Virus record (IMG/VR): IMGVR_UViG_3300030108_002876
Location: 1-64,000 of that record
Reading direction: 5' to 3' (one strand)
Length of the DNA: 64,000 nt
Source: a virus
The position numbers were made by a program, and so were the translations under genes. A model generated the notes under the pieces. The model searched no databases and had not been told where the DNA came from. It saw nothing but the letters and a program-made list of their open reading frames with translations. Below are positions 1 to 53,319 of the stretch, piece by piece. Position 1 is the stretch's first letter, and each line of letters opens with the position of its first letter.

Positions 1-41
1 CACCTCAACCACAAGCTGTAGAAGAGGACTTACCATTCTAG
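1..41 (+). CDS. 3' end of a single-stranded DNA-binding protein (partial)
   Basis: Only the last 12 codons are inside the window (reading from base 3; stop TAG at 39-41). They encode PQPQAVEEDLPF. A Gln/Pro-rich linker followed by an acidic tip ending in Leu-Pro-Phe is the usual C-terminal protein-interaction tail of bacterial and phage SSB (DDDIPF-like). The stop is one base before the primase-helicase start, so the two are in one operon. Identification rests on the tail alone; the OB-fold lies outside the window. Confidence 0.55.
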   Translation, partial: PQPQAVEEDLPF

Positions 42-42
42 T

Positions 43-1758
43 ATGAACGTACAGGAAACAGAGATCAATGGATTTGCGATTGACAAGTTCAATCAATATG
101 GCCTAGAAGTTGGCAAGACACAGGGTGTATGCCCTTGGTCTTCCAAGTGTAGGAAACCTGAAAATCAAAAGAAGAAATGTTCTTCTTATGATTGGGAACG
201 TGGTCTCGGCACCTGTCATAATTGCAACACTAGTTTTCAACTACATACTTACAAGCGCAAAGGTAACAGCGAAAAGGTTTATGTTAGACCTGGAGTTGAC
301 ACCATAATGCAACGTAGTACTAAAGTTGAAGACTGGTTTGCATCACGAGGCATATCTGCTCGTACCCTAGCTGACTTAAAAGTTAGCGAAGGTATGGAGT
401 GGATGCCTCAGACAGGTAAGTCCGAAAATACTATCCGCTTTAATTATTATATGGGCGATCAACTAATCAACATTAAGTATAGAGATGGTCGTAAAAACTT
501 TAAGCTTTATAAAGGGGCTGAAAAGATCTTTTACAATATAAACTCTATAGTTGGTTACGACGCTTGTATAATAGTTGAAGGCGAGATGGACGTGCTTGCA
601 ATGCACGAGGCGGGAGTTAAAAACGTTATATCAGTACCTAACGGTGCTACGTTAAACTCAAACAATCTCGATTACTTAGATAATTGCATCGACTATTTTG
701 AAGACAAGACTGAGGTTATCTTAGCTCTTGATACTGATGAACCAGGCCAAGCTCTTAAACAAGAGTTTATACGTAGGCTAGGAGCTGAAGTATGCTACTT
801 AGTTGACTTCGATGATTGTAAAGACGCCAACGAGTATTTATTAAAACACGGAGTAGATAAGCTACGCGACGTTGTTACTAGCTGTAAACAAGTACCGCTA
901 GAAAACGTATCAACATTATACGATATAGAAGATGAACTTAAAGACTTTGTACAAAACGGTTTTAAACCAGGTTTCCAAGTCGGACTTCCTAACTTTGATA
1001 AGATATTCAGTACTTATACTGGTCAGTTTATCACTGTCACTGGCATCCCGTCTTCTGGTAAGTCTGACTTCGTTGATCAAATGGTGGTTGGCTACAATAA
1101 CAACTATCAATGGAAGACTGCGTACGCGTCGCCTGAAAACCAACCGACGTATCTACATGCTCATAAGCTAATGCGTAAACACTGGCAAGACATGCCAACG
1201 CCAGGTGATATAGGTAGCCAACAATGGAAGAAGATAGCTGACCATGTTAATGACAACTACTTCTTTATTGATATGGACAAGTATACACTTGAGTCTGTAT
1301 TACGTAAAGGCGCTGAGCTTGTAAAGCGTAAAGGTATTAAATGTTTAGTTATCGATCCGTTTAATAAGGTTAGAGATACAAATGCACACTCTGATGATGT
1401 AAACCGTTATACAATGGATTACTTACAGAAGATCGAAATATTTGCTAAGAAATATGACGTGCTAGTGTTTATTGTAGCTCACCCAACTAAAATGTATAAA
1501 GGCCAAGATGGAAAAATTGAAGAACCTACTATGTATAATATCAAAGGCGGTGGTGAGTGGTATGACGCTTCTTATCACGGCTTATTGGTCCACAGGGACT
1601 ACGAAGCTAAAACGGTTAAAGCGAAAGTACTCAAGGTTAAATTCCAAAATCTAGGTGAGAACGGAGCTGAAGCTCATTTCACGTGGGAACCTAGATCTGG
1701 TAGTTTTGTACCTATGATGGCAGACGTTGCTGAACAAGAAGCTATGCCATGGGAATAA
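43..1758 (+). CDS. DNA primase-helicase (T7 gp4-like)
   Basis: Replicative bifunctional enzyme: synthesises RNA primers and unwinds the fork. The N-terminus carries a Cys-rich zinc-binding module (C30, C36, C46, C58, C61). A TOPRIM domain follows, with EGEMD at about 178-182 and DTDEPG at about 230. The C-terminal RecA/DnaB-type helicase has Walker A GIPSSGKS at about 334-341 and Walker B LVIDP near 434. Order and length (571 aa) match phage T7 gp4. It follows the SSB tail by one base and overlaps the next ORF by 10 bases, so it belongs to the plus-strand replication operon. Confidence 0.95.
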   Translation: MNVQETEINGFAIDKFNQYGLEVGKTQGVCPWSSKCRKPENQKKKCSSYDWERGLGTCHNCNTSFQLHTYKRKGNSEKVYVRPGVDTIMQRSTKVEDWFASRGISARTLADLKVSEGMEWMPQTGKSENTIRFNYYMGDQLINIKYRDGRKNFKLYKGAEKIFYNINSIVGYDACIIVEGEMDVLAMHEAGVKNVISVPNGATLNSNNLDYLDNCIDYFEDKTEVILALDTDEPGQALKQEFIRRLGAEVCYLVDFDDCKDANEYLLKHGVDKLRDVVTSCKQVPLENVSTLYDIEDELKDFVQNGFKPGFQVGLPNFDKIFSTYTGQFITVTGIPSSGKSDFVDQMVVGYNNNYQWKTAYASPENQPTYLHAHKLMRKHWQDMPTPGDIGSQQWKKIADHVNDNYFFIDMDKYTLESVLRKGAELVKRKGIKCLVIDPFNKVRDTNAHSDDVNRYTMDYLQKIEIFAKKYDVLVFIVAHPTKMYKGQDGKIEEPTMYNIKGGGEWYDASYHGLLVHRDYEAKTVKAKVLKVKFQNLGENGAEAHFTWEPRSGSFVPMMADVAEQEAMPWE

Positions 1759-2024
1759 ACGATAAAAAGAAAAATAAAAAAGTTTTAGGTAGAGCGCCTG
1801 AAGCTATACCTTATACTGATGATAACATGAAGCATATTGCTTGGTGTATGAACAATAGTATAGTCGTTGGTTTTTCTCCGATATGGGCTTCAGAAGATGA
1901 TTGGACTATTGATATAAAAATCAACAACAAATCAAGCGTTGATCCTAACACGTACACAGGAGAAGAAGTTATGGCTAAAGTTTATGAATACTATAAATAC
2001 TACTACGATAAATATGAAAAATAG
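1749..2024 (+). CDS. Small conserved-looking protein of unknown function
   Basis: A 91-residue protein between primase-helicase and the TS-family enzyme, overlapping both by about 10 bases, as is typical for a real gene in this compact operon. The N-terminus is Lys-rich (DKKKNKKV). The middle reads SIVVGFSPIWASEDDW and the end is Tyr/Lys-rich (YYKYYYDKYEK). The VVGF-type segment recalls the short protein at 4175-4324 (IIVGFRSYE), so the two may be distantly related. No family recognised; a role in nucleotide metabolism is only suggested by position. Confidence 0.7.
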   Translation: MGINDKKKNKKVLGRAPEAIPYTDDNMKHIAWCMNNSIVVGFSPIWASEDDWTIDIKINNKSSVDPNTYTGEEVMAKVYEYYKYYYDKYEK

Positions 2025-2658
2025 ATTTTATAATGCAGACTCTGCTTTCACTTATTTTTTAAATGAGATCAGATGTAATGGTATAGAGTTTGGTGATACT
2101 AAAGCTTTATTCAATATAGGTTTTACTATGGAACAACCACGTGATATGTTTATATTAAACAAAGAACGTGAGTGGAACAGAGAGTATGCTGAAGCTGAAT
2201 GGCAATGGTATTTATCAGGTGATCGTAATATAAACAAGCTAGGTGACTTATATGGTAAGGTGCCGCCGATATGGACGCGTATGGCTGACAAAGATGGTAA
2301 TGTTAATTCTAACTATGGCTGGCAGTGGAATCGTAATAATCAACTTACAAAAGTTATAGATAAATTATCTAACCCAAATACTAGACAAGCAGCTATATCG
2401 ATATACGATGGCAAAGAAATAGATATGTATGACACCGATACACCGTGTACTTACGCTGTGCAGTTTACGATAATGCCTAAAACTAATAAGCTTAACATGG
2501 CTGTAGTTATGCGATCAAACGATTTATGGTTTGGCTTCTGCAACGATCAGTATTGTTTTGCTAACTTGCAAATGCTTGTAGCATACGAGCTAGGTATTGA
2601 TGTCGGTGAGTATTATCATTATGCACACAACTTACACTTATATAATAACAAGCTATGA
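2014..2658 (+). CDS. Thymidylate synthase-family enzyme, probable dCMP hydroxymethylase
   Basis: I start at ATG 2014 (MKNRFYNAD), which overlaps the previous stop, rather than the longer ORF from 1939. Thymidylate-synthase family features in order: NYGWQW, the phosphate-binding segment NTRQAAISIYD, the nucleophile in TPCTY (C145), RSND at 167-170, and the closing HLHLYNN. The position equal to E. coli TS Asn177, counted from the RS of the RSxD motif, is Asp178. In T4 dCMP hydroxymethylase the equivalent residue is Asp179 and it sets preference for cytosine over uracil. I therefore favour dCMP hydroxymethylase; thymidylate synthase remains possible. MazG genes follow directly. Confidence 0.75.
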   Translation: MKNRFYNADSAFTYFLNEIRCNGIEFGDTKALFNIGFTMEQPRDMFILNKEREWNREYAEAEWQWYLSGDRNINKLGDLYGKVPPIWTRMADKDGNVNSNYGWQWNRNNQLTKVIDKLSNPNTRQAAISIYDGKEIDMYDTDTPCTYAVQFTIMPKTNKLNMAVVMRSNDLWFGFCNDQYCFANLQMLVAYELGIDVGEYYHYAHNLHLYNNKL

Positions 2659-3464
2659 CATATTGCATATACCATATACCAGGTAAAAAAATCGGTGTAA
2701 CAAATAACCTGGAAGAACGAGTTACACGACAACAAGGTTATACAGAAGATGAATATGAAATACTAGATATGTCAGACGACATTTGCTACATATCTCACAG
2801 AGAGATAGAGCTGCAAAAAGAATATGGCTATAAAGTAGATCGTAAACTGTATAAAGATTTAAACCCTATAAAACAAGAATTAAATTCTATGAATATAAAC
2901 ATAACAGAACAAACAACTACGTTTCCATGCCCAGTAAATAAGCTTAAAGGCAGACTTATGGACGAGATAGGTATGTGCTGGAAAACAGATCACGGTAGAT
3001 GCTGTATCGACGCTGACTCTATTAAATGGATTATGGAAAACGTAAAGACATCTATGTATAACAACGATAGATGCTACGTATATAATAAGGCGTTTGCTAG
3101 GTACTTTGATAACAACGATTGCTGTAAGACAAATACAGGCGCGTTAAACATGAGTGGTCGTAGAGCGCCAGATCGTTTTGATCTAATCAGAACATGGGCA
3201 AATGAACGAGGCTTGTATGATAAAGGCGATACTAAAACTCAATACTTAAAGCTTATGGAAGAAGCTGGCGAGCTTGGTAGAGCTATACTAAAGAACGACG
3301 AGCCTGAGTTTATTGACGCTATCGGTGATATGGTTGTAGTACTAACTAATCTAGCTAGACTAGGTGGCGTATCAATTGAAACTTGTATTGATTCAGCGTA
3401 TGACGTTATTAGTAAGCGTACAGGTAAAATGGTTAACGGTACATTTGTAAAAGATACACTATGA
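2655..3464 (+). CDS. GIY-YIG-like domain fused to MazG-like NTP pyrophosphohydrolase
   Basis: The start overlaps the TS-family stop (ATGA). Residues 1-75 look like a GIY-YIG nuclease fold: CIYHIPGKKIGVTNNLEERV has the shape of the GIY...YIG...N-x-x-x-R core. A Cys-rich middle (CPVNKLKG, CWKTDHGRCC, NNDCCKT) has no assignment. Residues about 175-260 hold an all-alpha MazG-type domain with metal-binding acids in KLMEEAGELGRAI and EFIDAIGDMVVVL (ExxE...ExxD). MazG enzymes hydrolyse (d)NTP to (d)NMP and pyrophosphate. The nuclease half may be inactive because I cannot place its catalytic Glu with certainty. Confidence 0.75.
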   Translation: MTYCIYHIPGKKIGVTNNLEERVTRQQGYTEDEYEILDMSDDICYISHREIELQKEYGYKVDRKLYKDLNPIKQELNSMNINITEQTTTFPCPVNKLKGRLMDEIGMCWKTDHGRCCIDADSIKWIMENVKTSMYNNDRCYVYNKAFARYFDNNDCCKTNTGALNMSGRRAPDRFDLIRTWANERGLYDKGDTKTQYLKLMEEAGELGRAILKNDEPEFIDAIGDMVVVLTNLARLGGVSIETCIDSAYDVISKRTGKMVNGTFVKDTL

Positions 3465-3742
3465 GCGATAGAGAAATAATGAATGCTAAGTCATCTACTA
3501 AAAAAGTAATGATGAAGTTTCGCGATCCAGTAGTACAACGCGTTTGTGAAAAGTTTACGCAACGATCTGACGAAGGCTATGCTAAGTACGGTCGTACGTT
3601 AAGCGATGAAATGCTAGGCGGACATAAACATCTTGATGGTTATCTCAACGATATACAAGAAGAGCTTATGGATGCAATACTGTATATACAAACAGCTCGT
3701 GAGTTAATAGACCATATCATTGGGCCGCAAGACGACGCATAA
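3461..3742 (+). CDS. Small MazG-like nucleotide pyrophosphohydrolase
   Basis: 93 residues. The RSDEGYAKYGRTL segment followed by GYLNDIQEELMDAILYIQ is the pattern of small phage all-alpha NTP pyrophosphatases related to MazG/dUTPase-2, with acidic metal ligands in QEELMDA. It overlaps the upstream fusion protein by 4 bases and the next ORF by 23. With the preceding gene it gives two MazG-type enzymes in a row beside a TS-family gene. That suits nucleotide-pool remodelling, for example dCTP removal as done by the superfamily member T4 gp56. Confidence 0.65.
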   Translation: MSDREIMNAKSSTKKVMMKFRDPVVQRVCEKFTQRSDEGYAKYGRTLSDEMLGGHKHLDGYLNDIQEELMDAILYIQTARELIDHIIGPQDDA

Positions 3743-4178
3743 AACCAAGAGCAGGAAACGAGGACCAGTTAAGTCAAAAAAGGTTACCTATGATGGGATA
3801 ACCTTTGCCTCGGGTCTTGAGCGTTATATGTATCAAGCACTAAAGAAAGCTAAGATCAAAGCCGAGTACGAGCCGGAGACATTTGTTCTTCAAGAAGGAT
3901 TTATGTGCGACATACAATGTTACGAGCGTCAAAGCAACGGTAAAGGCGACATGGTTAATCGCGGAGAAAAGAAAATACTACCTATCAAGTACACTCCTGA
4001 TTTTATCGGTAATGGTTTTATAATAGAAACAAAAGGCAGGGCAAACGAAAGTTTTCCTATGCGTTGGAAAATGTTTAAGAAATACATTAACAAACATAAT
4101 ATGCCTGTGACTTTATATAAACCCCAAAATCAAAAGGAATGTGATAAAGTTATAGAACTAATAAAAAGCAAACAATGA
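3720..4178 (+). CDS. Phage endonuclease, PD-(D/E)xK fold (DUF1064/T7 endonuclease I-like)
   Basis: 152 residues, apparently starting at TTG 3720 because no in-frame ATG precedes the conserved core. A basic N-terminus (GRKTTHKTKSRKR) is followed by ASGLERYMYQALKKA, YEPETFVLQ, then YTPDFIGNGFIIETKG. The E...PD...ExK spacing is that of the PD-(D/E)xK nucleases, in the arrangement seen in phage DUF1064/Holliday-junction-type endonucleases. It probably resolves branched DNA or degrades host DNA. Overlaps both neighbours. Confidence 0.75.
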   Translation: MGRKTTHKTKSRKRGPVKSKKVTYDGITFASGLERYMYQALKKAKIKAEYEPETFVLQEGFMCDIQCYERQSNGKGDMVNRGEKKILPIKYTPDFIGNGFIIETKGRANESFPMRWKMFKKYINKHNMPVTLYKPQNQKECDKVIELIKSKQ

Positions 4179-4324
4179 GTTGGGAATTAAGCGTTGGGTT
4201 TTACCCAGGAATAATTGTAGGATTTAGATCTTACGAACAAGAAACATGTAACAATCATGTGTTGTATTTACCTTTCGTAGATATATGTTTAACAATTTTA
4301 AAACAAGAGTATGAGTCAGATTAG
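4175..4324 (+). CDS. 49-residue protein preceding the ribonucleotide reductase
   Basis: A short ORF, ATG at 4175 overlapping the previous stop and TAG at 4322-4324 overlapping the reductase start, so it fills what would otherwise be a 130-base gap in a gap-free operon. The product begins MSWELSVGFYPGIIVG and contains HVLYLPFVDI. I recall similar short proteins next to ribonucleotide reductases in marine phages, but cannot check that here. Function unknown. Confidence 0.65.
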   Translation: MSWELSVGFYPGIIVGFRSYEQETCNNHVLYLPFVDICLTILKQEYESD

Positions 4325-6176
4325 CAGAGATATTTTATCAGATATTACAGTGCATATGAAGTATGCTAAGTATATACCTGAGCTTAACAGAAGAGAAACA
4401 TGGGAAGAGCTAGTTACACGTAACTTAGAGATGCACGTTAAGAAATATCCTGAGCTAACAGATCAAATCAACGAAGCTTATAAATATGTATATGATAAAA
4501 AAGTTTTACCGTCAATGCGTTCGCTACAGTTTAGTGGCAAGCCTATTGAAATATCTCCGAACAGGTTGTATAACTGTAGCTACTTACCTATTGACCACAT
4601 TGATAGCTTTAGTGAGACTATGTTCTTACTTCTTTCAGGCTGTGGGGTGGGTTATTCAGTGCAGCAGCACCACGTTGGAAGATTACCACACATCATTAAA
4701 CCGTTTGAAAAGCGACACAGGCGTTTTGTAATTGGTGATAGTATTGAAGGTTGGGCTGATGCGGTTAAAGTACTTGTTGAGTCGTACCTTGGTGGTCGCA
4801 GATGTTCTAAAGTAAAGTTTGATTACTCAGACATCAGGCCTAAAGGTGCAAGGCTAGTGACGTCAGGAGGCAAAGCTCCTGGCCCACAGCCACTCAAAGA
4901 GTGTTTAGTTAAAGTTCAAGGTATACTAGATAATAAAGATGATGGAACAAAGCTTACAAGTCTTGAAGTACACGATATCGTCTGTCATATTGCTGATGCT
5001 GTCTTGGCTGGTGGCATACGACGTGCAGCACTTATATCGTTATTTAGTGCTACAGATGAAGAAATGATATCATGTAAGTCAGGCAACTGGTGGGAACTTA
5101 ATCCGCAGCGTGGTAGAGCTAATAACTCTGCTGTGTTAATGAGACATAAAGTTAAGAAGAAGTTCTTTATGGATCTGTGGAAAAGAGTTGAAGCATCAGG
5201 AGCTGGAGAACCTGGCATATATCTAAACAATGATAAGGACTGGGGAACAAACCCGTGTTGTGAGATTGCTCTTCGTCCTTATCAGTTCTGTAACCTATGT
5301 GAGGTTAACGTATCAGATATAGTTGATCAAGATGATTTAAATGCTAGAGTTAAAGTTGCTGCCTTTATAGGTACGCTGCAAGCAGGTTATACAGACTTTC
5401 ACTACCTACGTGAGGTGTGGAAAGATACAACTGAGAAAGATGCATTAATAGGTGTATCAATGACAGGCATTGGCTCTAACAAAGTTATGAATCTTGATAT
5501 GAAAAAAGCTGCTGATATTGTTAAGCGTGAGAATACTAGAGTTGCTAAGCTTATAGGTATTAATAAAGCAGCGCGTACAACTTGTGTTAAGCCAGCAGGT
5601 ACTACATCACTAGTACTAGGCACATCATCTGGTATACACGCTTGGCATAACAAGCACTACGTACGTAGACTACGAGTTGGTAAGAACGAAGCTATTTATT
5701 CTTACCTAGTTAAGAACCACCCTGAGTTGATCGAAGATGAATACTTCAGACCTCATGATACAGCTGTAATCAGTGTACCGCAAGCGGCGCCTGATGGTTG
5801 TATTGTAAGAACTGAGTCTGCATTTGATTTACTTGAGAGAGTAAAGAAAGTATCAACTGACTGGGTATCGCCTGGTCATAGGACTGGTTCAAACACTCAC
5901 AATGTTTCTGCTACTATTAGTTTAAAAGCTAACGAGTGGGACGAGGCTGGTGAGTGGATGTGGAAAAACAGAGAATACTATAACGGTCTATCTGTTTTAC
6001 CATACGACGGTGGTACATATACTCAAGCTCCATTTGAAGACATTACTAAAACTAAATTTAATGAAATGGTTAAGTCACTAGATACTGTTGACTTATCAAA
6101 TGTAATGGAGACCGAGGATAACACAGATCTTTCTGGTGAGCTAGCTTGCTCAGGCGGGTCGTGTGAGGTTACATAA
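4311..6176 (+). CDS. nrdJ: Adenosylcobalamin-dependent ribonucleotide reductase (class II)
   Basis: 621 residues. It makes deoxyribonucleotides for phage replication. Landmarks: N-terminal SMRSLQFSG, the LLSGCGVGYSV segment with one active-site Cys, the NPCCEIAL loop at about 314-321 with the radical Cys and Glu, TTCVKPAGTTSL, and a C-terminal redox pair in ACSGGSCEVT (C613, C618). Monomeric length, the NCSYLPID region and lack of a separate radical subunit point to the B12-dependent monomeric type, common in marine phages. The host must supply cobalamin. Last gene of the plus arm, followed by a strong terminator. Confidence 0.9.
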   Translation: MSQISRDILSDITVHMKYAKYIPELNRRETWEELVTRNLEMHVKKYPELTDQINEAYKYVYDKKVLPSMRSLQFSGKPIEISPNRLYNCSYLPIDHIDSFSETMFLLLSGCGVGYSVQQHHVGRLPHIIKPFEKRHRRFVIGDSIEGWADAVKVLVESYLGGRRCSKVKFDYSDIRPKGARLVTSGGKAPGPQPLKECLVKVQGILDNKDDGTKLTSLEVHDIVCHIADAVLAGGIRRAALISLFSATDEEMISCKSGNWWELNPQRGRANNSAVLMRHKVKKKFFMDLWKRVEASGAGEPGIYLNNDKDWGTNPCCEIALRPYQFCNLCEVNVSDIVDQDDLNARVKVAAFIGTLQAGYTDFHYLREVWKDTTEKDALIGVSMTGIGSNKVMNLDMKKAADIVKRENTRVAKLIGINKAARTTCVKPAGTTSLVLGTSSGIHAWHNKHYVRRLRVGKNEAIYSYLVKNHPELIEDEYFRPHDTAVISVPQAAPDGCIVRTESAFDLLERVKKVSTDWVSPGHRTGSNTHNVSATISLKANEWDEAGEWMWKNREYYNGLSVLPYDGGTYTQAPFEDITKTKFNEMVKSLDTVDLSNVMETEDNTDLSGELACSGGSCEVT

Positions 6177-10117: not shown

Positions 10118-10750
10118 TTATATTGTTGCTATTGTTACTGTTGCACCATATATTAATGTATTAGTAGTTCCTGGAGCTACTTTTATTACTAAATCTTGCG
10201 TTGCACTAGACGGTATATCTGTTATATCAATGTTAGCGTTAAAATCGCCAGATGTTGAGCTTACGTTATTGTCAGCTCCAGTTTGATAGTTAAACGACTT
10301 AACTGTAACAGCGCTAGATGTACTTGCGCTCGCGTGAACTTGTACGTGAGTTGCTTTGTATCCACTAGGTAATTTTTGAAACGCGTAACCTTCTAAAAGA
10401 GAGTTAAAAAACACTATACCTAAAGTATTTGATGTATCATCTTCAATATATCCCCAAGCTCTAGTACTATCATCATTAGGCACAAACTGATCTGGCATTA
10501 TTTTAATAACAGTAGTGCTAAATGGATCTGCTGTTACTCCACCAGCAGCTGCATTAATACGATCATCAATAGCAGCTGAAGTCATAATGCTAGTGTTGTT
10601 ATCAGCAAACGATTCAGCAGATGTTTGCACAGCATTTATAGTTGCGCCATCAATTCTAAGATCACCATCTAAACGTGCAGTGCCACTTACTTGCAAGCTA
10701 CGAAACCTAGCTGCAAGGTTAAATACACGTTGACCAATATACTTAATCAT
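10118..10750 (-). CDS. Fibre-like structural protein
   Basis: 210 residues. The N-terminal part (LRSLQVSGTARLDGDLRIDG, SIMTSAAIDDRI) resembles the repeated stem of phage tail fibres and appendages. The remainder is Ser/Thr-rich and beta-predicted (SASTSSAVTVKSF, ATVTIATI). Starts 4 bases inside the T9SS gene stop. Function as a fibre or head-appendage protein is inference. Confidence 0.65.
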   Translation of the reverse strand: MIKYIGQRVFNLAARFRSLQVSGTARLDGDLRIDGATINAVQTSAESFADNNTSIMTSAAIDDRINAAAGGVTADPFSTTVIKIMPDQFVPNDDSTRAWGYIEDDTSNTLGIVFFNSLLEGYAFQKLPSGYKATHVQVHASASTSSAVTVKSFNYQTGADNNVSSTSGDFNANIDITDIPSSATQDLVIKVAPGTTNTLIYGATVTIATI

Positions 10751-13050
10751 TTAACAACTCTCTTGACAACAACGCGACCGTTCCAAACAATACGTAACAT
10801 ATACATTCCTGGAGGCCATAGGGACGCGTCTATCGCGTTCGTATTTGTTTTAGATAATAGGATACGTCCGTTTGAATCGATCACGTCTATGTCAACGTTT
10901 TGATTTATGTTTAACACATTACTAACTGGGTTTGGATAGACAACTAAGTCATCACCAGCTAGTATGGATTCTATACCTGTTACACTGCAGTAGTCATATG
11001 TTGCTTGACAAGTATTGTCCCACTCTTCACTACAGCAATATGGATCTGCTTCAATTACCCACGCATAACACAAGTCGTTTAACCAGTACGGTTCGCCAGG
11101 TCCACCAATACAACCAGCATCATATAAACAGTTATCAGTAGATTCATTTGCAAGTTCATTATAGTTGTACGCTAGTGGGTCCATACAGTCGACCACCACT
11201 TCTTCGCACGAGCCATTATCAGTATTAGCAGCTGGATCATAATTAAAAGCGCTACTGTCAGTACAGCCATAAATGTAAGGGATACAGCTACCATCTTCAG
11301 CGTTAGCTTCTGGATCATAATTAAACATTGTTGCGTCCGTGCAACCGTAGACAAAAGGTATACAGCTATCATCGTCAGTATTAGCGGCCGAGTTGTAATT
11401 GAAAGCAAGTGGGTTCATGCAGCCTAACACTACAGGTATACAACCCTCGTTATCAACGTTTGCTTCTGGGTTATAGTTAAATGCTTCTTCGTCCATGCAA
11501 CCAAATACTGCTAGCGTCTGACAGTCACCGTTATCGTAATCAGCTTCGTAGCCTTGCGTATAATATTCTAAGTAACCCGCTTGAGTACAACCAGCTTGAT
11601 AGTAGCAACTACCATCTTCTGTATTTACTTCAGCGTTATAGTTTTGTGCTGCTTCATCTGTACAACCATATGAGTATGGCTCACAGTAGTTACCACACCT
11701 TAAATATGGAGTATAAGTTTTATTAGGTTCTACAGGATCAAGCCAAGGATTAGTGCCTTTATCAAATACAATATCTCCGTTAGGTTTAATAAGTTTAAAT
11801 CCTACTTGTGATATATCTGTTACAGTTCCGCCTTGACCAAAGAAGCCGCCAAACTCTACAGGATAAAATGTAAACTCAACATGTGTTAGTGAGCTTACTG
11901 TAATATTATAAAACGCATCTTGATCTGTACATGTAAATGCGCCAATAGGTTCGCCATCTTGTACTACACCTAAATATGAGTTATCCCAACCATCACCACC
12001 ACCATCAAACAACATAAGCGTGTACTCACACTCAGGCACTAAGTCCATGGTATTAGCTAGTGAGTCATAGTTAAAAGCGTTTTCGTTTATACAACCTGGT
12101 ATTGCAGGCGTTATACACTGGCTTTGATCGTTATTTTCTGCAAGAGAATTAAACTCTAAATAATTAGGGTCTAAGCAACCAAACGGTGGATTTTCTGGTG
12201 GACAAGGATTAAGTAAGTTAGGCACGCTATTAGCTTCATAACCAAAGTCTGGATTTTGCCCTTCAAACGGTAGTATACTGTATATAACGTTACCACACTC
12301 TGTGTAAACTAATACATCACCATCAGCTGATCCACCTGTAGTAGAGCCAGCAAGACCATCACCATACGAGTCGTATATATTAAACGTAAACTCTACGCCT
12401 AACGGTATACAATACTCTGTAGTAACGTTAAGCCCAGCAGTTTCATAAAAACCTTGTTCTTCGCTAGCTAAAACAATAGGCACGCTGTCCGTAGTTAATA
12501 TTTCCCAGCTAGTTTCCCACTGTGAAAACGTATCACCTGTTATACTTACATAAACGTTTTGAGTTAGCGTATCACCGCACTCAGATACATTACCGTACAA
12601 ACAAGACTCTTCAAACTCAGACTCAATACCAGCAAATGGATTATAGTTAGACGCTAGCGGATCCATACAACCAAGACCACAATTAGGATTATCTAATACA
12701 AGAGTATCCATAATACCGCCAGGTGATTCTACTATAAAGTAATATTCGCTACTAGATACAGGCGTAGATTGTGCATAGCCATAAAAGTAATTACCAAACC
12801 AAGGGCCATAAGGTATAAACTGTAGATTATCTAAATCATCGCCTCTATAAAATCCTACAGGCTGACAACCTGGTGGCGCTTCCCAGTTTACGCTTAGCTC
12901 ACCTTGATTAGGCGACCATGGAAAACAAGATATCTCACCTTGTAAATTTGTTATACCACAAGGTGGTGGCGGTATAGTATCTACTTGAGAAAATACACAA
13001 CTCGCTAGTAGCCAAAATATTACTACAAATACGTACGCTAACTTCTTCAT
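10747..13050 (-). CDS. Secreted repeat protein with T9SS C-terminal sorting domain
   Basis: 767 residues. Signal peptide at the start (KKLAYVFVVIFWLLASCVFSQ; a lipobox-like LASC is also present, cleavage at S-Q is more usual). The body contains about ten copies of a GC-(T/M)-D-x-x-A-x-NY-(N/D)-P-x-A-N-x-(D/E)-DGSC unit. The last 75 residues are a type A T9SS sorting domain: VVYPNPVSNVLNI, VIDSNGRIL, LWPPGMYMLRI, VVVKRVVK. In Bacteroidota such domains send proteins through the outer membrane to the surface. It sits in a cassette of exported proteins, inside the phage late operon. Confidence 0.85.
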   Translation of the reverse strand: MKKLAYVFVVIFWLLASCVFSQVDTIPPPPCGITNLQGEISCFPWSPNQGELSVNWEAPPGCQPVGFYRGDDLDNLQFIPYGPWFGNYFYGYAQSTPVSSSEYYFIVESPGGIMDTLVLDNPNCGLGCMDPLASNYNPFAGIESEFEESCLYGNVSECGDTLTQNVYVSITGDTFSQWETSWEILTTDSVPIVLASEEQGFYETAGLNVTTEYCIPLGVEFTFNIYDSYGDGLAGSTTGGSADGDVLVYTECGNVIYSILPFEGQNPDFGYEANSVPNLLNPCPPENPPFGCLDPNYLEFNSLAENNDQSQCITPAIPGCINENAFNYDSLANTMDLVPECEYTLMLFDGGGDGWDNSYLGVVQDGEPIGAFTCTDQDAFYNITVSSLTHVEFTFYPVEFGGFFGQGGTVTDISQVGFKLIKPNGDIVFDKGTNPWLDPVEPNKTYTPYLRCGNYCEPYSYGCTDEAAQNYNAEVNTEDGSCYYQAGCTQAGYLEYYTQGYEADYDNGDCQTLAVFGCMDEEAFNYNPEANVDNEGCIPVVLGCMNPLAFNYNSAANTDDDSCIPFVYGCTDATMFNYDPEANAEDGSCIPYIYGCTDSSAFNYDPAANTDNGSCEEVVVDCMDPLAYNYNELANESTDNCLYDAGCIGGPGEPYWLNDLCYAWVIEADPYCCSEEWDNTCQATYDYCSVTGIESILAGDDLVVYPNPVSNVLNINQNVDIDVIDSNGRILLSKTNTNAIDASLWPPGMYMLRIVWNGRVVVKRVVK

Positions 13051-27460: not shown

Positions 27461-27844
27461 CTATTCAATACTTCCGTAGCCACTACTATCTGAAGATTCT
27501 AAGTTAACAGCAAACAGCTCGGCTTCTACTGTAGATGTATTAACCATTTTTACATTAGCATGATAACCAAGTAGTGTGCTTAGATTAGCTTTATTGTCTT
27601 TACTAAACAACACGTATTTACTTACACCATTGTTACCAGCAAAAGGTAGTATTGTTTCACATATAACTACTGGGGAGTTACTCTGCCCGTTAGTTATTTG
27701 CCGTATTTGACCTATTTCAACTACGTTATTATTACCGTTAGTTGTAAAACCGCCGTCACTACCTGTGTCTACATAGTATGCAGTATCTCCAACTTGGCAA
27801 GATACGTTTAGTGGCTGTGAAAATGTTAATGTTATTGATGGCAT
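27461..27844 (-). CDS. Hypothetical beta-rich virion-associated protein
   Basis: 127 residues beginning MPSITLTFSQPLNVSC, mostly short beta segments (GDTAYYVDTGSDGGF, VVICETILPF, VKMVNTSTVEAELFAV). Its start touches the stop of the giant tail protein, so it is translated with it. Possibly a tail accessory. No family recognised. Confidence 0.65.
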   Translation of the reverse strand: MPSITLTFSQPLNVSCQVGDTAYYVDTGSDGGFTTNGNNNVVEIGQIRQITNGQSNSPVVICETILPFAGNNGVSKYVLFSKDNKANLSTLLGYHANVKMVNTSTVEAELFAVNLESSDSSGYGSIE

Positions 27845-30800
27845 TAGCTTACTGTTATTATGTCGTCGATATAAACTTCGTGTGAAAGAGTATTATCAAT
27901 ATCGCCAACTCTTAAATTACCTGTTATTACTATATTGTCTCCTACTTTCGTAGCTTCAGCGCTAATTATACTAACGTCTGTATTAGTAACTGTATTAGAT
28001 AATGGGTGTGAAAACGTTAAAAAGTCGTCGTCAGAAAGTGTTACATCTGTGTCAACAACTATTCTAGTTGCACTAGTAATGCTAGCCACTTTTACAGCTA
28101 CGTTGCCTATGCTAGTGTCGTGCGTTACGTCCATACCTACAGCTATACCTCTAGTGCTATTAAGATCTATAACCTTAGCATTACTAACCGCACCGTTTAC
28201 TTGCTGACGAACAGAAGTAGTAAACCCTGATATTTTTTCAGTAACGTCTACGCTACCAGTAACATTAAGCGTGTTACTATTAGGTAGTATAGTTAAAGAA
28301 AACCCTACGCAAGAAGTATTATCTTCTATGAACTTAATATCAGCGCCACTTGCAACGCTGACTGCAGCGCTTAGTATAACAGCGTTTTCTCTTACGCTAG
28401 TTACTGTAACGCCTGCGCCAACACCTGTACCTACAACTTTCATGCCACTTACAACTCTATTTAAGTTCTTGTGATTTTTAAGAAGTATTCTGTTAGTGGT
28501 TGAAGCTGCTGATGTTTGAATGCTTGTAGAATAATAAGGAGCTGTTACATAGTCGTCGTCCTCGTATCTTGTAGGGCGTTTAATAGTTTGTGTTGGTAAA
28601 GTACCAAAGTTACCGGCTGTATCCGTTACAGGTTGTAGAGTAATTGTTTTAATACCGTGCTGTATAATAGACTTGTCACCGTCTTTAGTTGGAACTCTAG
28701 AATCTAACGTAGCTACACCACCGCTAATAGTAACAGGATATATGATTACATCGTATCTAGTATTATCAGTTACTTGAGGCAATAAAACTCTATGTATTTT
28801 CTTTTTACCGCTAGGTATTGTAGCTTCAAAATTAGTATTATCGTTAACGTCTGTTATAAAATTGTGGTTTACAAAATCATATCTACTAACTGTAGTAGCA
28901 TCTGTTTCGCTGGTCTTCTTTAATAAAGATATTTTATATTTTGTATCAGCTTTACCTTTTACTGTTATAGGATAAAAACCTCCTGTGTAAGGCAGCTTTT
29001 GATCTACAATAACGTCTGTTATTCTGTGTGTAAAACCATCTGTAGGCTCTACAGATATAACATCGTAGTTTATAAATGCGAGATGCTTTTGCTGGCAGAA
29101 ACCAATTTCAGCTGGAGGATCTGCTAATAGCGGATCTTCTGGAGGAGTATATGATATTTCTACAACAATGCCAGTAGTTTGAGAGTTGCTAGTGGTTTCC
29201 GTTATTGAAGAAGAATAATAACCTTCGTAACCCAAGATACCTAGTTGGTAGTGAGCAAGCTCGTTAAACGAAACGCTTATATTTTGCAAATAATAGCCAG
29301 TGCTAGCGTTAATGGTATACTTAGCAATAACGGTACTAGTATTACTTTGTACTGTGCCAGTGTGCTGGCCTGTAAACAAATTAGGGTCAGATGCAGGAGA
29401 AACATCACTTTCAGTTATATTAGCAAGATCAGCATAAGGAGTGCCAAGAGTAACTCCAGTTTGTTCTACAATATTAACTTTTAAGCAAACGTCTCTATCG
29501 ACTGATTGACTAACTGTACCATCAATGTCTACGTATATAGTATTATTATTTGTTGGTGTGTAGCTATTTAAATGTACTCTAGCACGAACTGTATTATCGT
29601 ACTCACCTACTGTGCCAAGATCTGAGAATACTACTTTTGCCACAGGTGTATCAACATTACCACCAGTGTATTCGTTTGTAGCTGTTAAAGAACCGCTTCC
29701 TATAGTAAAGTCACTAGCTTGTATAAAGTAACCTTCAGCATTGTTTGCGCTTATCACTAAGTCTACTGTTTGAGCAGATTCAGCTGTACCAGTTACTATT
29801 TCAAAAGTATTAGATGACACAGTAAAACCTACGTCATCAGTTGAATCCCAAGCACTACCGGTACCGTCAGCGCCAACATAACTATTAGAAGTATTGTTAG
29901 CAACAGTAACCGTCATAGTTTCACCTAGACCGCTAGTGTCGTGTGCAAAGCTAGCAGTACCTAAACCTTGCACAGAAAACTCATGTTCATCTAAATTAGA
30001 TAGCGTGGTTGTTTCACCACATATAGCGCCATAGTATTTACCTTCTCTATTTATAAACTCTATTTCTCCACTAGTTTGAAGATCAGTAGTTATGATTTCA
30101 GTATACCAACCTGCAGTACCTGCGCTATCAGCTCCTGGTCCACCTAAGTTGTAATACTCTCCGTCTGTTATTGAGCTATTAGTCTCAAGCCCGCTGTTTG
30201 AACTATAGTTACCTGTTAACCAAGAGCTGCTGCTTTCAGTATCAAAGTTTGTTATTCTAGCGTTTGTGCCTTCGTAGCTTATAGAGTTAAATGTTTTAAC
30301 TGATTGAGGGAAAGCATTAAAAGGTATGTTTACCGTAGAAGTATATTGAACTCCATAGAAATTATTTCTAGGAACAACAGCTTCTGAATCGTCTAACTCT
30401 ACGTGATGCTCGTATAAATGACCTAAGTTAAAAGTAAAAAACTTATTGTTTAAACTTATACCTTTTTCTGGTATGTAAGATCTAAAGCTTGTCCAGCCAC
30501 CTGTCGACTCTGCAAATGCTAATGTAGTTTGTTCATAAGGTCGAACAAAAGCTGAAGCACCGTAGTTAAAGTGATATTTATTTATACCAAGGTTGTACTC
30601 TCTTTTACTTTCGTCGTACATGCCTATGCATCTAAATACTCCTTCTCTAAATGAGTCGCGGAAATAGTCAATCATACCGACATTGGAAATAGATGTTATA
30701 CCTTCAGTAGTTAACTGCAATACGTGACCACGAGCAGTGTCTGTGAAGTAAATTCTATATGGCGTTACTGCTATAGACTCTGGATTAGTTGCAACTCCGT

Positions 30801-33800
30801 AATCTCCTTGGTAAGCTGTCGCAGCACCTATAACTGCATTAGTAGCTACAACCTGTGGTTTTCCATCAGAATTAAATAAAAGGTCTTTATTAGTTTCTGC
30901 TCTAAGTACTCTATCTTCGCAGAATACAACTAACCTACTTTCTTTATTAACTAAAGCTTGTATAGATCCATGGCCTGGATTTAAATCTTTAGTTATGTCT
31001 TCACCAATTATAAATTGATTTAAAGCGTTTTGTTTTGATACAGAATTATAAACACCAGACCAAATCATAGAGTGTTTTCTAACTTCAGCTTTGTTAGCTC
31101 CAGCGGCTACAGCGGACGCTTTAACGCCGTTAGATATTGTTTCTGCATTAAAATCATCGCGTATTCTATCAGACTCTACTCCATTTCCAAACGCAAAACA
31201 ATTAGACCAATTTAAAGTATGTTTCTTTGTCCATAGCTCTGCACCGACAACGTCTTCACCTCTCATACCATGTACTGTAAGCTGAGTAGCACCAGCCGCT
31301 ACAGTGCCGTTTACTTTTATTTCAGCGCTAGATGTATCTGGTTTATTTATAGTTAATATATCTCCGTCTGTTATTGGAGTTAACGCGCTTAATCCAGTTG
31401 TTCCAGCAGTTTGAGAAAAGTTTACAGTATTGTCGTTAGCCCAGCTACTAATAGTATATTCAACTGTTCCTATAGTAAATGTAGAACCTAAAGGTATAAC
31501 TTTTTCTTTAGTATCTTTTTCTAAATATAAAGGATTTTTGTTACTAGCTTCCCAATAAATATCTAATTCAACTTGCTCTCTTGGCTCTGTCTCCCATATA
31601 GCAGGATTCTCAGCATAGACCGCACGTCCTCTTGGATCAGTATACTGCTCTACTATCTCTATAACATCTTGATTTGTTCCATCATGACGCAAGCCTGCAA
31701 CTTGGGTGTCAGCGTTGGCTGAAGTACCACGCATAGGATTATATCCACTAATACCGCTACCTATAGGTGGGTTAACCATTATCGTCCAGCGCTGTCTTAA
31801 ATTTGCGCCTCTATACTGATTCTTCTTGTTACCTGTAGCATAATTTCTTATACCAAAAGCGCCTGTATGTATATTTGTTCCATGCTTCCAATACGTACCT
31901 GCTCCTGTACTGTATCCAAATTCAGGGTAATTTGCAAACGACTCAACTGTGTAAACTGTTTCGTCTGGATCATTTTGAAACCTAAACATACAACCGGGCT
32001 CTACTAGTTCTCTTATAAACCTAGCAGCAGCTTCATAGTTATCTCCATTAACATCTTCTAGTTGGTGAGGAAATGGTTTATCACCCCAATTACTACCATT
32101 ATATCCTGTACCCATACCTGTCCACGATATATCCATACACTTGCCACCGTTCCATATACCTCTACTAGGCATACCATGATTACTCTTCATGTTACCTGTA
32201 ATGTTGTCGTTTCCGTTCCAAGATGGCGCACCTTCTGGTTTATCTTGAGCGTCTGGCTCAACTGCCCAGTTACCATACGCGTCTTGGTTTTGGCCAACTG
32301 CTATACCCATAAAGTTACCTTGAAATAAATTACCTCCAAAATAACCTCCTGGTCTATTACCAGTTCTACCAGACCATGAATATGCAGTGCATGCATCTAT
32401 AAAAAAGTCTTGACGACCAGCCATTGTGGTCCAAAAATCTTCAGCTCTACCAGCGCCACCAAATCCACCTGCTGATGCGTTTTTATCGTTAACAGCTCGT
32501 ATAGGATCTGCGTGCGGTCTTTCATTTTTAACTTCAGTACCCTCGTTACTCTCACCTGGTACACCACCTTCTGATTGATTACCCCACCAATAACCAGTAT
32601 GGTGGCTATAAGCAGCCTGGTTTTTTGACATGCTTTCGCCTGGCTGATTGTATATCTTAAAAGTATCGCCGCCGTTTATCGAGTGCTTAAAGTGAGTTCC
32701 ATCACTAAGCTGATAAACATAGTTATCACCACCTCCCCACTCTTTAGCGTCTTCGGGTATTTCACCTAAATAACCAGCCGTACTAGCTCCAGCGTTAGGA
32801 TCAAATGCGTTCCAATAACCGTTGTTGTTTATATATCTAAGACCCCAGTTTGCTTTAACACGGTACTGACCATCACCAGCTCGTAAAACGTATTGATCTA
32901 AAACACTATCTCTTAATATTTTTACAAAAAACCTACCATCATACTCAGGTCTATTAACTACTTTGTATTCATATATATCAAAGAAAAGATAATCAACTCT
33001 AGTAGCATATGTATCAGCAGTAGAAGTTATTAATATGTCTTCATTAAACTTACCAGCAATTTTAATTTTATAATCATCACTTTCATCAGGTCCAAGCTTA
33101 GTTATTTTAGCTATCTCGTATTCCTCTGATTCATCAGGTCCAGCAAAAAACTTAATAGTCATTCTGTCAGGAGTTCTCAACCACTCATCAGTGTCTCCAA
33201 ATACATCTTCAAACGCGCTTGCAGTCACTAATATATATGTTTGATCTTCCAGTGGATAACCTCTAGTAGCGTTACCTATATCATCGTCATCATTATAAAA
33301 CCTACCTAGAGTATTGATGTCAGTTTTTATATAGTCTGGAGCGTCATTTTCTATAGCTATTACTTTGTACCTAGCTTTGTCATGAACGTATTCGTCACTT
33401 CCATGACCTTTTTTAAGAGTCAAGTAATCTTCTGTATCTAGTTTATTTCTATCAGCAGAAGGAAACGATATCCAAATATTACCATCTTCAGCAAAGTACC
33501 ATCTATCCATGGCTAAGTTGTAATACTCTGAAGACGTTTCTTTTACATAGTAAGAATAATACTTAGCCCAAGAAGGTACGTAAGTTCCTTCGTTAAATTT
33601 AACAGTAAGCTTGTTTTGGGTATGTGACTGATCTTTCTCTACCCTTGTAGTTGCGAAACCATCGAAGTCACTAGACGTTAGTACAGGCGTTTCTCTACCG
33701 TACTTATCACTAAACACAACGCCTAACTGATACGTTCGTATTGATTTAACAGAGCTTAATCCAAACTCAGAGTCAGCAATAGATGTAGAGCTATATCCTA

Positions 33801-51483: not shown

Positions 51484-51518
51484 ATATCACACGTTTAGCG
51501 AAGTAGTTACTCCACTAA
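51484..51518 (-). promoter_or_regulatory. Hairpin across the groES stop plus promoter-like run
   Basis: On the minus strand the inverted repeat TTAGTGGAGTA-AC-TACTTCGCTAA (51495-51518) covers the groES stop codon. It is followed at once by ACGTGTGATATATATATT. The 95-base gap to the next gene (51411-51506) has no ORF and is AT-rich. Likely a transcript boundary: partial end after groES and new start for the next genes. Confidence 0.45.
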
Positions 51519-51776
51519 CACTACATCTCTTGCTCGGATTACATGGTACATTGTGTCTGCCCAGGTTATACCATGCCCAGCATGTTTGTCGTAATATATA
51601 ATATCGTTATCTTTTAGGCCTTCAACTAGATTACCTGTAGAGATAATCGTAGCTTTAATATACCTATTGCTTTCGTCTAGTTCTTCAGTAAGAAGTAAGC
51701 CACCAACTTTCTTAGGACCCACTTTCTCTACGTCTACTACTATGTAATCATTGATTGCTTTCATCTGCTCTAGCAT
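51507..51776 (-). CDS. groS: Co-chaperonin GroES
   Basis: 89 residues (or 85 from a second Met). Cpn10 pattern: MKAINDYIVVDVEKV, mobile-loop region VGPKKVGGLLLTEELDES with GGLLLT in the place of the GroEL-binding IVL, then IKATIISTGN, LKDNDIIYYDKHAG, IRARDVVLVE. Caps the GroEL ring. It starts 29 bases inside the end of groEL and lies downstream of it, opposite to the cellular groES-groEL order. Confidence 0.85.
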   Translation of the reverse strand: MLEQMKAINDYIVVDVEKVGPKKVGGLLLTEELDESNRYIKATIISTGNLVEGLKDNDIIYYDKHAGHGITWADTMYHVIRARDVVLVE

Positions 51777-53319
51777 TTGATATTACACAATCAGCTGATA
51801 TAATAGTTGACACTACTGATACAGCGTTCTTTAATGCAGACTTAGTAACAAGTACTGGATCTACAATACCTGCTTCAATCATATCTACACACTCACCAGT
51901 TATTACATCGATGCCACAGTACTCTTGATCGTCGCATACCACACCTGTAATACCTGCGTTATCTAGTATTGTATCGAAAGGAGCTTTAATAGCTTCTAGC
52001 AATACTTCCTCACCCGCGTTAGCGGGAGAAATTTTTTGAGCAGCCCACCATAGTGCTGAACCGCCGCCAGGTACTATGCCTTCTTTTAGTGCAGCTTTAG
52101 TTGCGTATATAGCATCTTCAACCCTGTCTTTCTTTTCTTTGAGTTCTACTTTAGAACCTGCACCCACTTTGATAATACCTACAGAGCCTGATAGCATAGC
52201 TAAACGTTCTTCAAGCTTCTTTTTAAAAAACCCGTTTTTTTCTTCAGCTACTTTCTTAGACACTTGCTCAATACGTTCGTTAATTTCCTCTGTCATTTCT
52301 TCAAGAGTTATTACTGTATTAGTATCGCTAGTTACCGCGTACTCAGCTTCACCAAGATGTTCTACACTTATGAGATCTAAGTCATCACCTAGCTCTTCAT
52401 TAATAACAGTAGCGCCTGTCATAATAGCTAAATCTTCTGTAGCATCTTGCTTAGTAGGTCCAAAGCCAGGCAAGTCAACGATGTTAACTTTAATATTACC
52501 TTTTACCTTGTTCATCATAAGCGCTGACTTGACGCCTTGCGCTACTGGAGCTATAATAAGTAAAGCCCTACCTTTTTTAATGACATGCTCTAATACGCTT
52601 TGTATCTTACGTACATTAGGTATCTCACTTGACACAATAAGTACATATGGATTATCTAGCTCTGCTAGATGTTTATCAGTGTTAGTGACGAAGTGCGGCG
52701 ACGTAAGCCCGCAGTCAAACTGCACTCCGTCAACTAACTCAACATGCGTTTCATCGGTGTCACCTTCCTCCATAAGTACGACACCATTCTTACCTACTTT
52801 TTGGTAAGCTTCTGCAATAATGCTTCCAAGGGCTTGATCATTATTACAACTAATCGCGCTAACAGCGCTAAGCATGCTCCCTTCAACTTCAATAGCCCTT
52901 CCTTCCAGATGTTGCACAACTTTGTCCAGGCCTGAGCTAATACCTGCTTTGATTTCTCTAATAGATTCATCAGCATATTTTTCTTTGTTTACTTCTTTTA
53001 AAAGTGCTTCAGCAAGGACAGTAGCTGTAGTAGTACCGTCACCTGCTTCTTTCACTGTATTGTTAGCTGCCTCCTTAATTAAGGTTGCACCTATGTTTTC
53101 GACCGGATCATATAAGACTACGCTTTGGGCAACGGTTACTCCGTCTTTTGTTATGACCGGCTTGCCGCGAGCATCTTCGTATATAACGCATTTACCCGAT
53201 GCGCCTAATGTACTCTTTACGGCTTGCGCTAGTTTAGTTACACCAGCAATTACTTTATCTTTAGCGATTTGACCAAAGTCTAAACGTTTGATCAACTCAC
53301 TAGGTAAGTTGTATTCCAT
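51748..53319 (-). CDS. groL: Chaperonin GroEL (60 kDa)
   Basis: 523 residues, complete group I chaperonin: KSTLGASGKCVIYED, KDGVTVAQSV, ATP-site AGDGTTTATVLAEAL, apical domain with LAELDNPYVLIVSSE and KGRALLIIAPVA, and EGIVPGGGSALWWA with the catalytic region. It is about 25 residues shorter than E. coli GroEL and lacks the Gly-Gly-Met tail, ending ISNARADESNQ. It probably folds capsid or the giant tail proteins. Sequence is clearly diverged at ordinarily constant places, so old phage acquisition rather than recent host transfer. Confidence 0.95.
   Translation of the reverse strand: MEYNLPSELIKRLDFGQIAKDKVIAGVTKLAQAVKSTLGASGKCVIYEDARGKPVITKDGVTVAQSVVLYDPVENIGATLIKEAANNTVKEAGDGTTTATVLAEALLKEVNKEKYADESIREIKAGISSGLDKVVQHLEGRAIEVEGSMLSAVSAISCNNDQALGSIIAEAYQKVGKNGVVLMEEGDTDETHVELVDGVQFDCGLTSPHFVTNTDKHLAELDNPYVLIVSSEIPNVRKIQSVLEHVIKKGRALLIIAPVAQGVKSALMMNKVKGNIKVNIVDLPGFGPTKQDATEDLAIMTGATVINEELGDDLDLISVEHLGEAEYAVTSDTNTVITLEEMTEEINERIEQVSKKVAEEKNGFFKKKLEERLAMLSGSVGIIKVGAGSKVELKEKKDRVEDAIYATKAALKEGIVPGGGSALWWAAQKISPANAGEEVLLEAIKAPFDTILDNAGITGVVCDDQEYCGIDVITGECVDMIEAGIVDPVLVTKSALKNAVSVVSTIISADCVISNARADESNQ

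What the first reader, a model, noticed from the sequence alone, without database searches (positions are those of the whole stretch)
2014..3742. Possible cytosine-replacement module: dCMP enzyme plus two MazG-type pyrophosphohydrolases
Two all-alpha NTP pyrophosphohydrolases lie directly after the dCMP-type enzyme. In T4 the related gp56 removes dCTP so that hm-dCTP can replace it. Here one MazG is fused to a GIY-YIG-like domain; T4-like phages use GIY-YIG nucleases (such as SegA/EndoII) against unmodified DNA. A fused clearing enzyme and nuclease would be a neat unit, but no sugar transferase or dNMP kinase was found.
Basis: inference. Interest (0 to 1): 0.7.

Follow-up and report, generated by a model that had tools for sequence, protein, structure and literature searches.

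The report
Phage cytosine-replacement core with fused GIY-YIG–MazG
A marine virus of (probably) Bacteroidota bacteria carries a conserved gene pair that most likely swaps the DNA letter C for hydroxymethyl-C, as phage T4 does, but its nucleotide-clearing enzyme is fused to a DNA-cutting-type domain, a combination not seen in T4 and found together in hundreds of related viral sequences.

Summary
The finding holds at its core. ORF 2014-2658 is a T4-gp42-type dCMP hydroxymethylase: the nucleophile Cys145 and the dCMP-specifying Asp178 are invariant in 245 relatives. ORF 2655-3464 is a real fusion of a GIY-YIG-like domain, an unassigned middle domain and a MazG domain; catalytic-type residues of both end domains are invariant in 242 proteins. 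ORF 3461-3742 could not be shown to be a second MazG. The strongest new evidence is linkage: every fusion gene with enough DNA upstream has a TS-fold enzyme there, always with Asp at position 177 (E. coli numbering), even where ThyA-like enzymes displaced the hydroxymethylase (94/94 Asp; ThyA-like homologues elsewhere are 32/33 Asn, the exception on a contig that ends too soon). On another phage backbone, T4-type beta- or alpha-glucosyltransferases lie directly upstream of the hydroxymethylase. No such transferase, dNMP kinase or recognised DNA polymerase was found in this near-complete 65.5-kb genome. Most likely the module makes 5-hydroxymethyl-dCMP while MazG turns dCTP into dCMP, draining dCTP and feeding the hydroxymethylase. 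The GIY-YIG role, MazG substrate preference and DNA content are untested. Verdict: new variant of a known kind.

The parts
43..1758 (+). primase-helicase (TOPRIM + DnaB-like), first gene of the conserved block
   Evidence: Pfam Toprim_2, DnaB_C; phrog_239 DNA primase/helicase 1.2e-82
1749..2024 (+). small conserved ORF of unknown function, 91 aa
   Evidence: homologues at the same place in many relatives; no family match
2014..2658 (+). dCMP hydroxymethylase (T4 gp42 type), 214 aa; nucleophile C145, specificity residue D178
   Evidence: PF00303 4.6e-27; T4 gp42 alignment; C145 and D178 invariant in 245 distinct sequences
2655..3464 (+). GIY-YIG-like / middle domain / MazG fusion protein, 269 aa
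2655..2852 (+). GIY-YIG-like domain (aa 1-66): Y6, K12, G14, R22, Q27, E50 invariant
   Evidence: T5orf172/MUG113 hits in relatives, predicted topology, conservation in 242 proteins
2868..3116 (+). middle domain of unknown fold (about aa 72-154)
   Evidence: confident alpha/beta segment in the model; fold barely tested
3168..3461 (+). MazG all-alpha NTP pyrophosphohydrolase domain (aa 172-269): E202, E203, E206, D221, D225 invariant
3461..3742 (+). small helical protein with invariant EExxD motif, 93 aa; MazG membership not shown
3720..4178 (+). DUF1064 / phage endonuclease I-like nuclease; conserved next gene of the block
   Evidence: PF06356 4.7e-10; phrog_190 Holliday junction resolvase 2.3e-14
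4311..6176 (+). class II (B12-dependent) ribonucleotide reductase; class I NrdA/NrdB in its place in some relatives
   Evidence: PF21995 and PF02867, phrog_367 2.2e-134; NrdAB relatives

Best explanation
The block is the core of a cytosine-replacement system. Shown by sequence: a gp42-type dCMP hydroxymethylase directly followed by a GIY-YIG-like–MazG fusion, always together. Inferred: the MazG domain hydrolyses dCTP to dCMP and pyrophosphate, which removes normal dCTP from the pool of the (probably host) polymerase and supplies dCMP to the hydroxymethylase. The product 5-hydroxymethyl-dCMP is raised to the triphosphate by kinases not identified here (presumably the host's) and built into phage DNA. 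In this genome the base probably stays 5-hydroxymethylcytosine; on another backbone it is probably glucosylated. Least certain: the fused GIY-YIG-like domain is an active, domesticated DNA nuclease that attacks DNA lacking the modification (host DNA or wrongly made phage DNA).
For: Asp178 with Cys145 invariant in 245 enzymes, the residue that switches TS-fold enzymes from dUMP to dCMP; in the MetaGPA study phage contigs with experimentally modified C carry mostly Asp at 177, and PRA-PH pyrophosphohydrolase and TS domains co-occur there (PMC8670742). The window's MazG domain also hits PRA-PH, as do all 66 aligned relatives. Linkage: 61/61 loci fetched by the fusion have the hydroxymethylase within 1 kb upstream, 76/76 the converse; 158 of 160 further loci hold both, the two others being cut near the gene. 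Slot swap: ThyA-like enzymes next to the fusion are 94/94 Asp, those elsewhere 32/33 Asn, the one exception (L347) lying on a contig that ends 0.5 kb downstream; no fusion gene with room upstream lacked a TS-fold enzyme. Tree: hydroxymethylases one clade, the large ThyA-Asp clade nested near Asn enzymes and a second small ThyA-Asp group. Glucosyltransferases directly upstream of the hydroxymethylase on another backbone: T4 beta type in 7 records (phrog_7922, which T4 b-gt matches at 1e-188), T4 alpha type in L182 (PF11440 1.6e-13, phrog_2888 4e-66). Both end domains keep invariant catalytic-type residues in 242 proteins. C-containing 4-base palindromes are hardly avoided (obs/exp 0.97, against 0.68 in 25 kb of Cellulophaga phage phi10:1; weak).
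Against: No gp1-type dNMP kinase in this genome or 29 relatives, although T4 needs one, so a pathway step is unassigned. MazG specificity cannot be read from sequence: cyanophage MazG prefers dGTP and dCTP but also acts on many other nucleotides (PMC6850273). The MazG domain shows no sequence similarity to T4 gp56. The second Tyr of GIY-YIG is Lys here. Linkage counts are not independent events; the tree gives only two or three origins. The palindrome test does not separate T4 (0.86) clearly.
Confidence: 0.75

Rival explanations
1. The MazG is a general nucleotide-recycling enzyme, as proposed for cyanophages, that turns over host-derived dNTPs; its place beside the hydroxymethylase is only shared ancestry of one replication block.
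For: Cyanophage MazG has broad specificity with highest activity on dGTP and dCTP and is read as a recycling enzyme (PMC6850273); MazG domains alone are common in phages that lack this pair; the pair sits in a conserved replication block in the main lineage.
Against: The GIY-fused form follows an Asp-177 TS-fold enzyme on at least two backbones and keeps doing so when that enzyme is swapped for a ThyA-type one.
Confidence: 0.2
2. The GIY-YIG-like domain is not a nuclease acting on C-DNA but a captured homing-endonuclease remnant or a nucleic-acid-binding tether that now only regulates or localises MazG. (This concerns one domain only and can hold together with the best explanation.)
For: Second Tyr of the motif is Lys; the window protein scores below the Pfam cut-offs. 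In T4 a GIY-YIG homing endonuclease gene (segF) overlaps the dCTPase gene 56, so capture of such a neighbour is plausible.
Against: Always present, always fused, with Tyr6, Arg22 and Glu50 invariant in 242 proteins, unlike sporadic homing genes or a decayed domain.
Confidence: 0.4
3. The TS-fold enzyme makes 5-methyl-dCMP (or another 5-substituted dCMP) rather than 5-hydroxymethyl-dCMP, giving a 5-methylcytosine phage like XP12.
For: An Asn-to-Asp change turns thymidylate synthase into a dCMP methylase (cited in PMC8670742); the ThyA-like Asp enzymes at the same slot in relatives look like full-length synthases.
Against: The window enzyme is the short gp42-like type with T146 as in T4 (T149), and its kin on another backbone lie beside T4-type glucosyltransferases that need a hydroxymethyl group.
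Confidence: 0.12

Closest known systems
Phage T4 cytosine replacement (gp42 dCMP hydroxymethylase, gp56 dCTPase, gp1 kinase, glucosyltransferases, EndoII)
   Same: gp42-type enzyme with Cys and Asp active site; a candidate dCTP pyrophosphohydrolase beside it; T4-type alpha/beta glucosyltransferases in relatives on another backbone; a GIY-YIG partner (T4 segF overlaps gene 56).
   Different: Pyrophosphohydrolase is MazG, not similar in sequence to gp56, and fused to the GIY-YIG-like domain; no gp1-type kinase, no glucosyltransferase of the tested kinds and no recognised DNA polymerase in this genome.
Modified-cytosine phage contigs of the MetaGPA study (PMC8670742)
   Same: Asp-177 TS-fold enzyme and PRA-PH-type pyrophosphohydrolase on the same contigs.
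   Different: There the partners described are carbamoyltransferase and deaminases; GIY-YIG and MazG are not mentioned in that paper's main text.
Cyanophage S-PM2 MazG and S-2L MazG-like enzyme
   Same: Same all-alpha NTP pyrophosphohydrolase fold (Z 9.9 to the S-2L enzyme); activity on dCTP/dGTP known for S-PM2.
   Different: The solved S-2L chains are of about 100 residues, without a GIY-YIG-like domain.
CMoRE GIY-YIG restriction enzyme (PMC12923530)
   Same: A GIY-YIG nuclease domain coupled to a second domain in a cytosine-modification context.
   Different: A bacterial defence enzyme that cuts hydroxymethylated DNA, opposite in logic; has the full GIYxY-YIG motif.
Bacteroides phage BF486P2 hydroxymethylase
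   Same: Closest hydroxymethylase in the annotated phage collection, 45% identity, annotated deoxycytidylate 5-hydroxymethyltransferase.
   Different: No homologue of the fusion protein was detected in its 40-kb region.

Membership tests
dCMP hydroxymethylase (T4 gp42 type) | thymidylate-synthase fold family | tested here: met
   PF00303 95.3 bits against cut-off 24.3
dCMP hydroxymethylase (T4 gp42 type) | catalytic Cys (T4 C148) and Asp in place of Asn177 (T4 D179) | tested here: met
   C145 and D178 align; invariant in 245 relatives
dCMP hydroxymethylase (T4 gp42 type) | hydroxymethylation of dCMP | not testable with these tools
   needs an enzyme assay
MazG NTP pyrophosphohydrolase (ORF 2655-3464, C-terminal domain) | family profile and metal-binding EExxE ... 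ExxD | tested here: met
   28.4 bits against 22; E202, E203, E206, D221, D225 invariant
MazG NTP pyrophosphohydrolase (ORF 2655-3464, C-terminal domain) | all-alpha MazG fold | tested here: met
   Z 9.9, rmsd 2.7, 96 aligned to 7ody
T4 gp56 dCTPase | sequence homology to gp56 | tested here: not met
   BLASTP E 0.34
GIY-YIG superfamily (ORF 2655-3464, N-terminal domain) | beta-beta-alpha-beta-alpha core | tested here: inconclusive
   order seen in the model, but this domain was barely tested in the structural search
GIY-YIG superfamily (ORF 2655-3464, N-terminal domain) | catalytic Tyr, Arg and Glu | tested here: met
   Y6, R22, E50 invariant in 242 proteins; their roles are assigned by position in the motif
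GIY-YIG superfamily (ORF 2655-3464, N-terminal domain) | profile score / YIG tyrosine | tested here: inconclusive
   T5orf172 hits 25 of 66 relatives, best 3.2e-4; window below cut-off; Lys at the YIG Tyr
MazG (ORF 3461-3742) | profile similarity to MazG families | tested here: not met
MazG (ORF 3461-3742) | MazG fold | tested here: inconclusive
   helical-hairpin model, no informative match
T4-type complete cytosine replacement system | dNMP kinase (gp1, PF21448) | tested here: not met
   absent in window record and 29 relatives; T4 control found at 2e-108
T4-type complete cytosine replacement system | DNA glucosyltransferase | tested here: not met
   AGT and BGT absent in this record and 29 main-lineage relatives, present in other-backbone records
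T4-type complete cytosine replacement system | modified C in virion DNA | not testable with these tools
   needs LC-MS of DNA

The most novel reading that the evidence does not exclude
A single polypeptide joins nucleotide-pool control (dCTP to dCMP by MazG) to DNA surveillance (GIY-YIG cleavage of DNA that still carries normal C). It would be a portable core for cytosine replacement that works with exchangeable dCMP-modifying enzymes and exchangeable glucosyltransferases across marine phages.
Probability: 0.3. Interest if true: 0.75.

Novelty: new variant of a known kind. Interest (0 to 1): 0.6.

Why it matters
If true, hydroxymethyl-cytosine (or related) DNA is widespread in uncultured marine phages with genomes of roughly 60-70 kb, far from T4. 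The GIY-YIG–MazG gene would be a sequence marker for it: in these data every such gene with enough DNA upstream has an Asp-177 enzyme there. It also gives a testable answer to how a phage lacking a gp56 homologue could clear dCTP, and a new enzyme architecture that ties the nucleotide pool to a nuclease-type domain.

Tried and rejected
Second MazG at 3461-3742: rejected as shown, after Pfam on 62 members, profile-profile against the MazG domain and against DUF6378, and fold search. Hidden kinase or glucosyltransferase in this genome: family searches and a P-loop scan found only the helicase and unlikely matches. T4 gp56 homology: none. Palindrome avoidance as a test of modification: compatible but weak. 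A held-library search for papers naming dCMP hydroxymethylase, MazG, glucosyltransferase and phage found none. The 94/94 against 1/33 contrast was not turned into a p-value because the tree shows only two or three origins.

Full report
What is there. The window belongs to a 65,509-base IMG/VR virus record. Its last 436 bases repeat its first 436 at 91% identity, so it is probably a near-complete genome with some strain mixing, and absences in it carry weight. The finding lies in a rightward block: primase-helicase (43-1758), a small unknown ORF (1749-2024), a thymidylate-synthase-fold enzyme (2014-2658), a fusion protein (2655-3464), a 93-residue helical protein (3461-3742), a DUF1064/endonuclease-I-like nuclease (3720-4178) and a class II ribonucleotide reductase (4311-6176). 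All or most of this block recurs in about 150 fetched IMG/VR loci.

The enzyme. It matches thymidylate synthase (PF00303, 95 bits) and aligns with T4 dCMP hydroxymethylase at 35% identity over 160 alignment columns. T4 Cys148 and Asp179 correspond to Cys145 and Asp178. Both are invariant in 245 distinct relatives. Asp in place of Asn177 (E. coli numbering) switches the substrate from dUMP to dCMP, and in the MetaGPA experiment TS-fold enzymes on phage contigs with physically modified cytosine carry mostly Asp there (PMC8670742). That study also reports PRA-PH pyrophosphohydrolase and TS domains co-occurring on modified contigs.

The fusion. Residues 172-269 are a MazG domain by profile and fold (Z 9.9 to the cyanophage S-2L enzyme). 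Residues 1-66 have the secondary structure order expected of GIY-YIG. GIY-YIG-type Pfam models hit about a third of 66 relatives, best E 3e-4. Tyr6, Lys12, Gly14, Arg22, Gln27 and Glu50, and the MazG residues Glu202, Glu203, Glu206, Asp221 and Asp225, are invariant in 242 distinct proteins, so both ends are under selection. The middle domain has no assignment.

Linkage. Loci fetched by the fusion protein have the hydroxymethylase within 1 kb upstream in 61 of 61 cases with room; loci fetched by the hydroxymethylase have the fusion in 76 of 76. Of 160 further loci, 158 hold both and the other two are cut near the gene. About fifty of these show no such primase-helicase and mostly lie on a different genome backbone. 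There, genes directly upstream of the hydroxymethylase include T4-type beta-glucosyltransferases (seven records; T4 b-gt itself matches that family at 1e-188) and, in L182, a T4-type alpha-glucosyltransferase. L053 has a gene weakly like T4 beta-glucosyltransferase (PF09198, 4e-4) plus a PLP-dependent enzyme.

A natural swap. In contigs reached through bacterial genome bins and two further viral scans, the hydroxymethylase is replaced at the same place by a full-length ThyA-like enzyme. All 94 distinct ThyA-like enzymes beside the fusion carry Asp177. Of 33 ThyA-like homologues found elsewhere, 32 carry Asn; the single exception, L347, lies on a 2.1-kb contig that ends shortly after the gene. 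No fusion gene with 1.7 kb of upstream sequence lacked a TS-fold enzyme. The tree places the hydroxymethylases in one clade, a large ThyA-Asp clade next to Asn enzymes, and a second small ThyA-Asp group. The count of independent origins is therefore small, two or three, and no p-value is claimed.

What is missing. No gp1-type kinase in this record or 29 relatives, and no T4-type glucosyltransferase; T4 itself rings in the kinase and beta-glucosyltransferase controls. No family A polymerase in 30 records, and no family B or C polymerase in 12. The phage may use the host polymerase, which would make control of dCTP in the pool the natural way to force replacement; this is inference.

Mechanism. 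Inferred: the class II reductase has the B12-dependent insertion domain (PF21995) which I associate from general knowledge with the triphosphate-reducing type, so it may make dCTP directly. MazG would convert dCTP to dCMP, the hydroxymethylase would make 5-hydroxymethyl-dCMP, and unidentified kinases would raise it to the triphosphate. The GIY-YIG-like domain may cut DNA lacking the modification; it could also be a tether or a domesticated homing domain. In T4 the GIY-YIG gene segF overlaps the dCTPase gene 56, so a captured neighbour is possible.

Judgement. It is a new variant of the T4-type strategy rather than a new kind of system.

Noticed in passing
window 10747-13047 (-): A 766-aa phage protein ends in a Por_Secre_tail (type IX secretion sorting) domain, E 4.5e-11; with Flavobacterium, Cellulophaga and Bacteroides phages among the nearest relatives of several genes this points to a Bacteroidota host.
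   Followed up: partly
window 27844-35736 (-): A 2,630-aa protein carries the crAss-phage muzzle protein C-terminal domain (PF25729, at its cut-off).
   Followed up: no
whole window and 29 related records: No DNA polymerase of family A (30 records) or of families B and C (12 records) found despite a primase-helicase, ligase, Erf-like annealing protein and ribonucleotide reductase.
   Followed up: partly
window 51507-53316 (-): A GroEL-like chaperonin (phrog_5725, 1e-134) and, by eye, a GroES-like small ORF beside it (not searched).
   Followed up: no
L112, L119, L120, L076, L138 after NrdA: Relatives with class I reductase carry a JmjC-like protein and, in some, a DAHP-synthase/KdsA-like enzyme, a KdsB-like cytidylyltransferase and possible glycosyltransferases; might modify surface sugar or the base.
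   Followed up: partly
L211 3683-6966; L053 5242-8001: Gene sets directly upstream of the hydroxymethylase with a PLP-dependent enzyme, two poorly characterised proteins and (L211) a fourth: candidate new hypermodification of hydroxymethyl-C.
   Followed up: partly
window 1-436 and contig 65074-65509; L019 and L028 (one contig): Contig ends repeat each other at only 91% and 84% identity, i.e. divergent terminal duplicates, probably strain mixtures in circular assemblies.
   Followed up: partly
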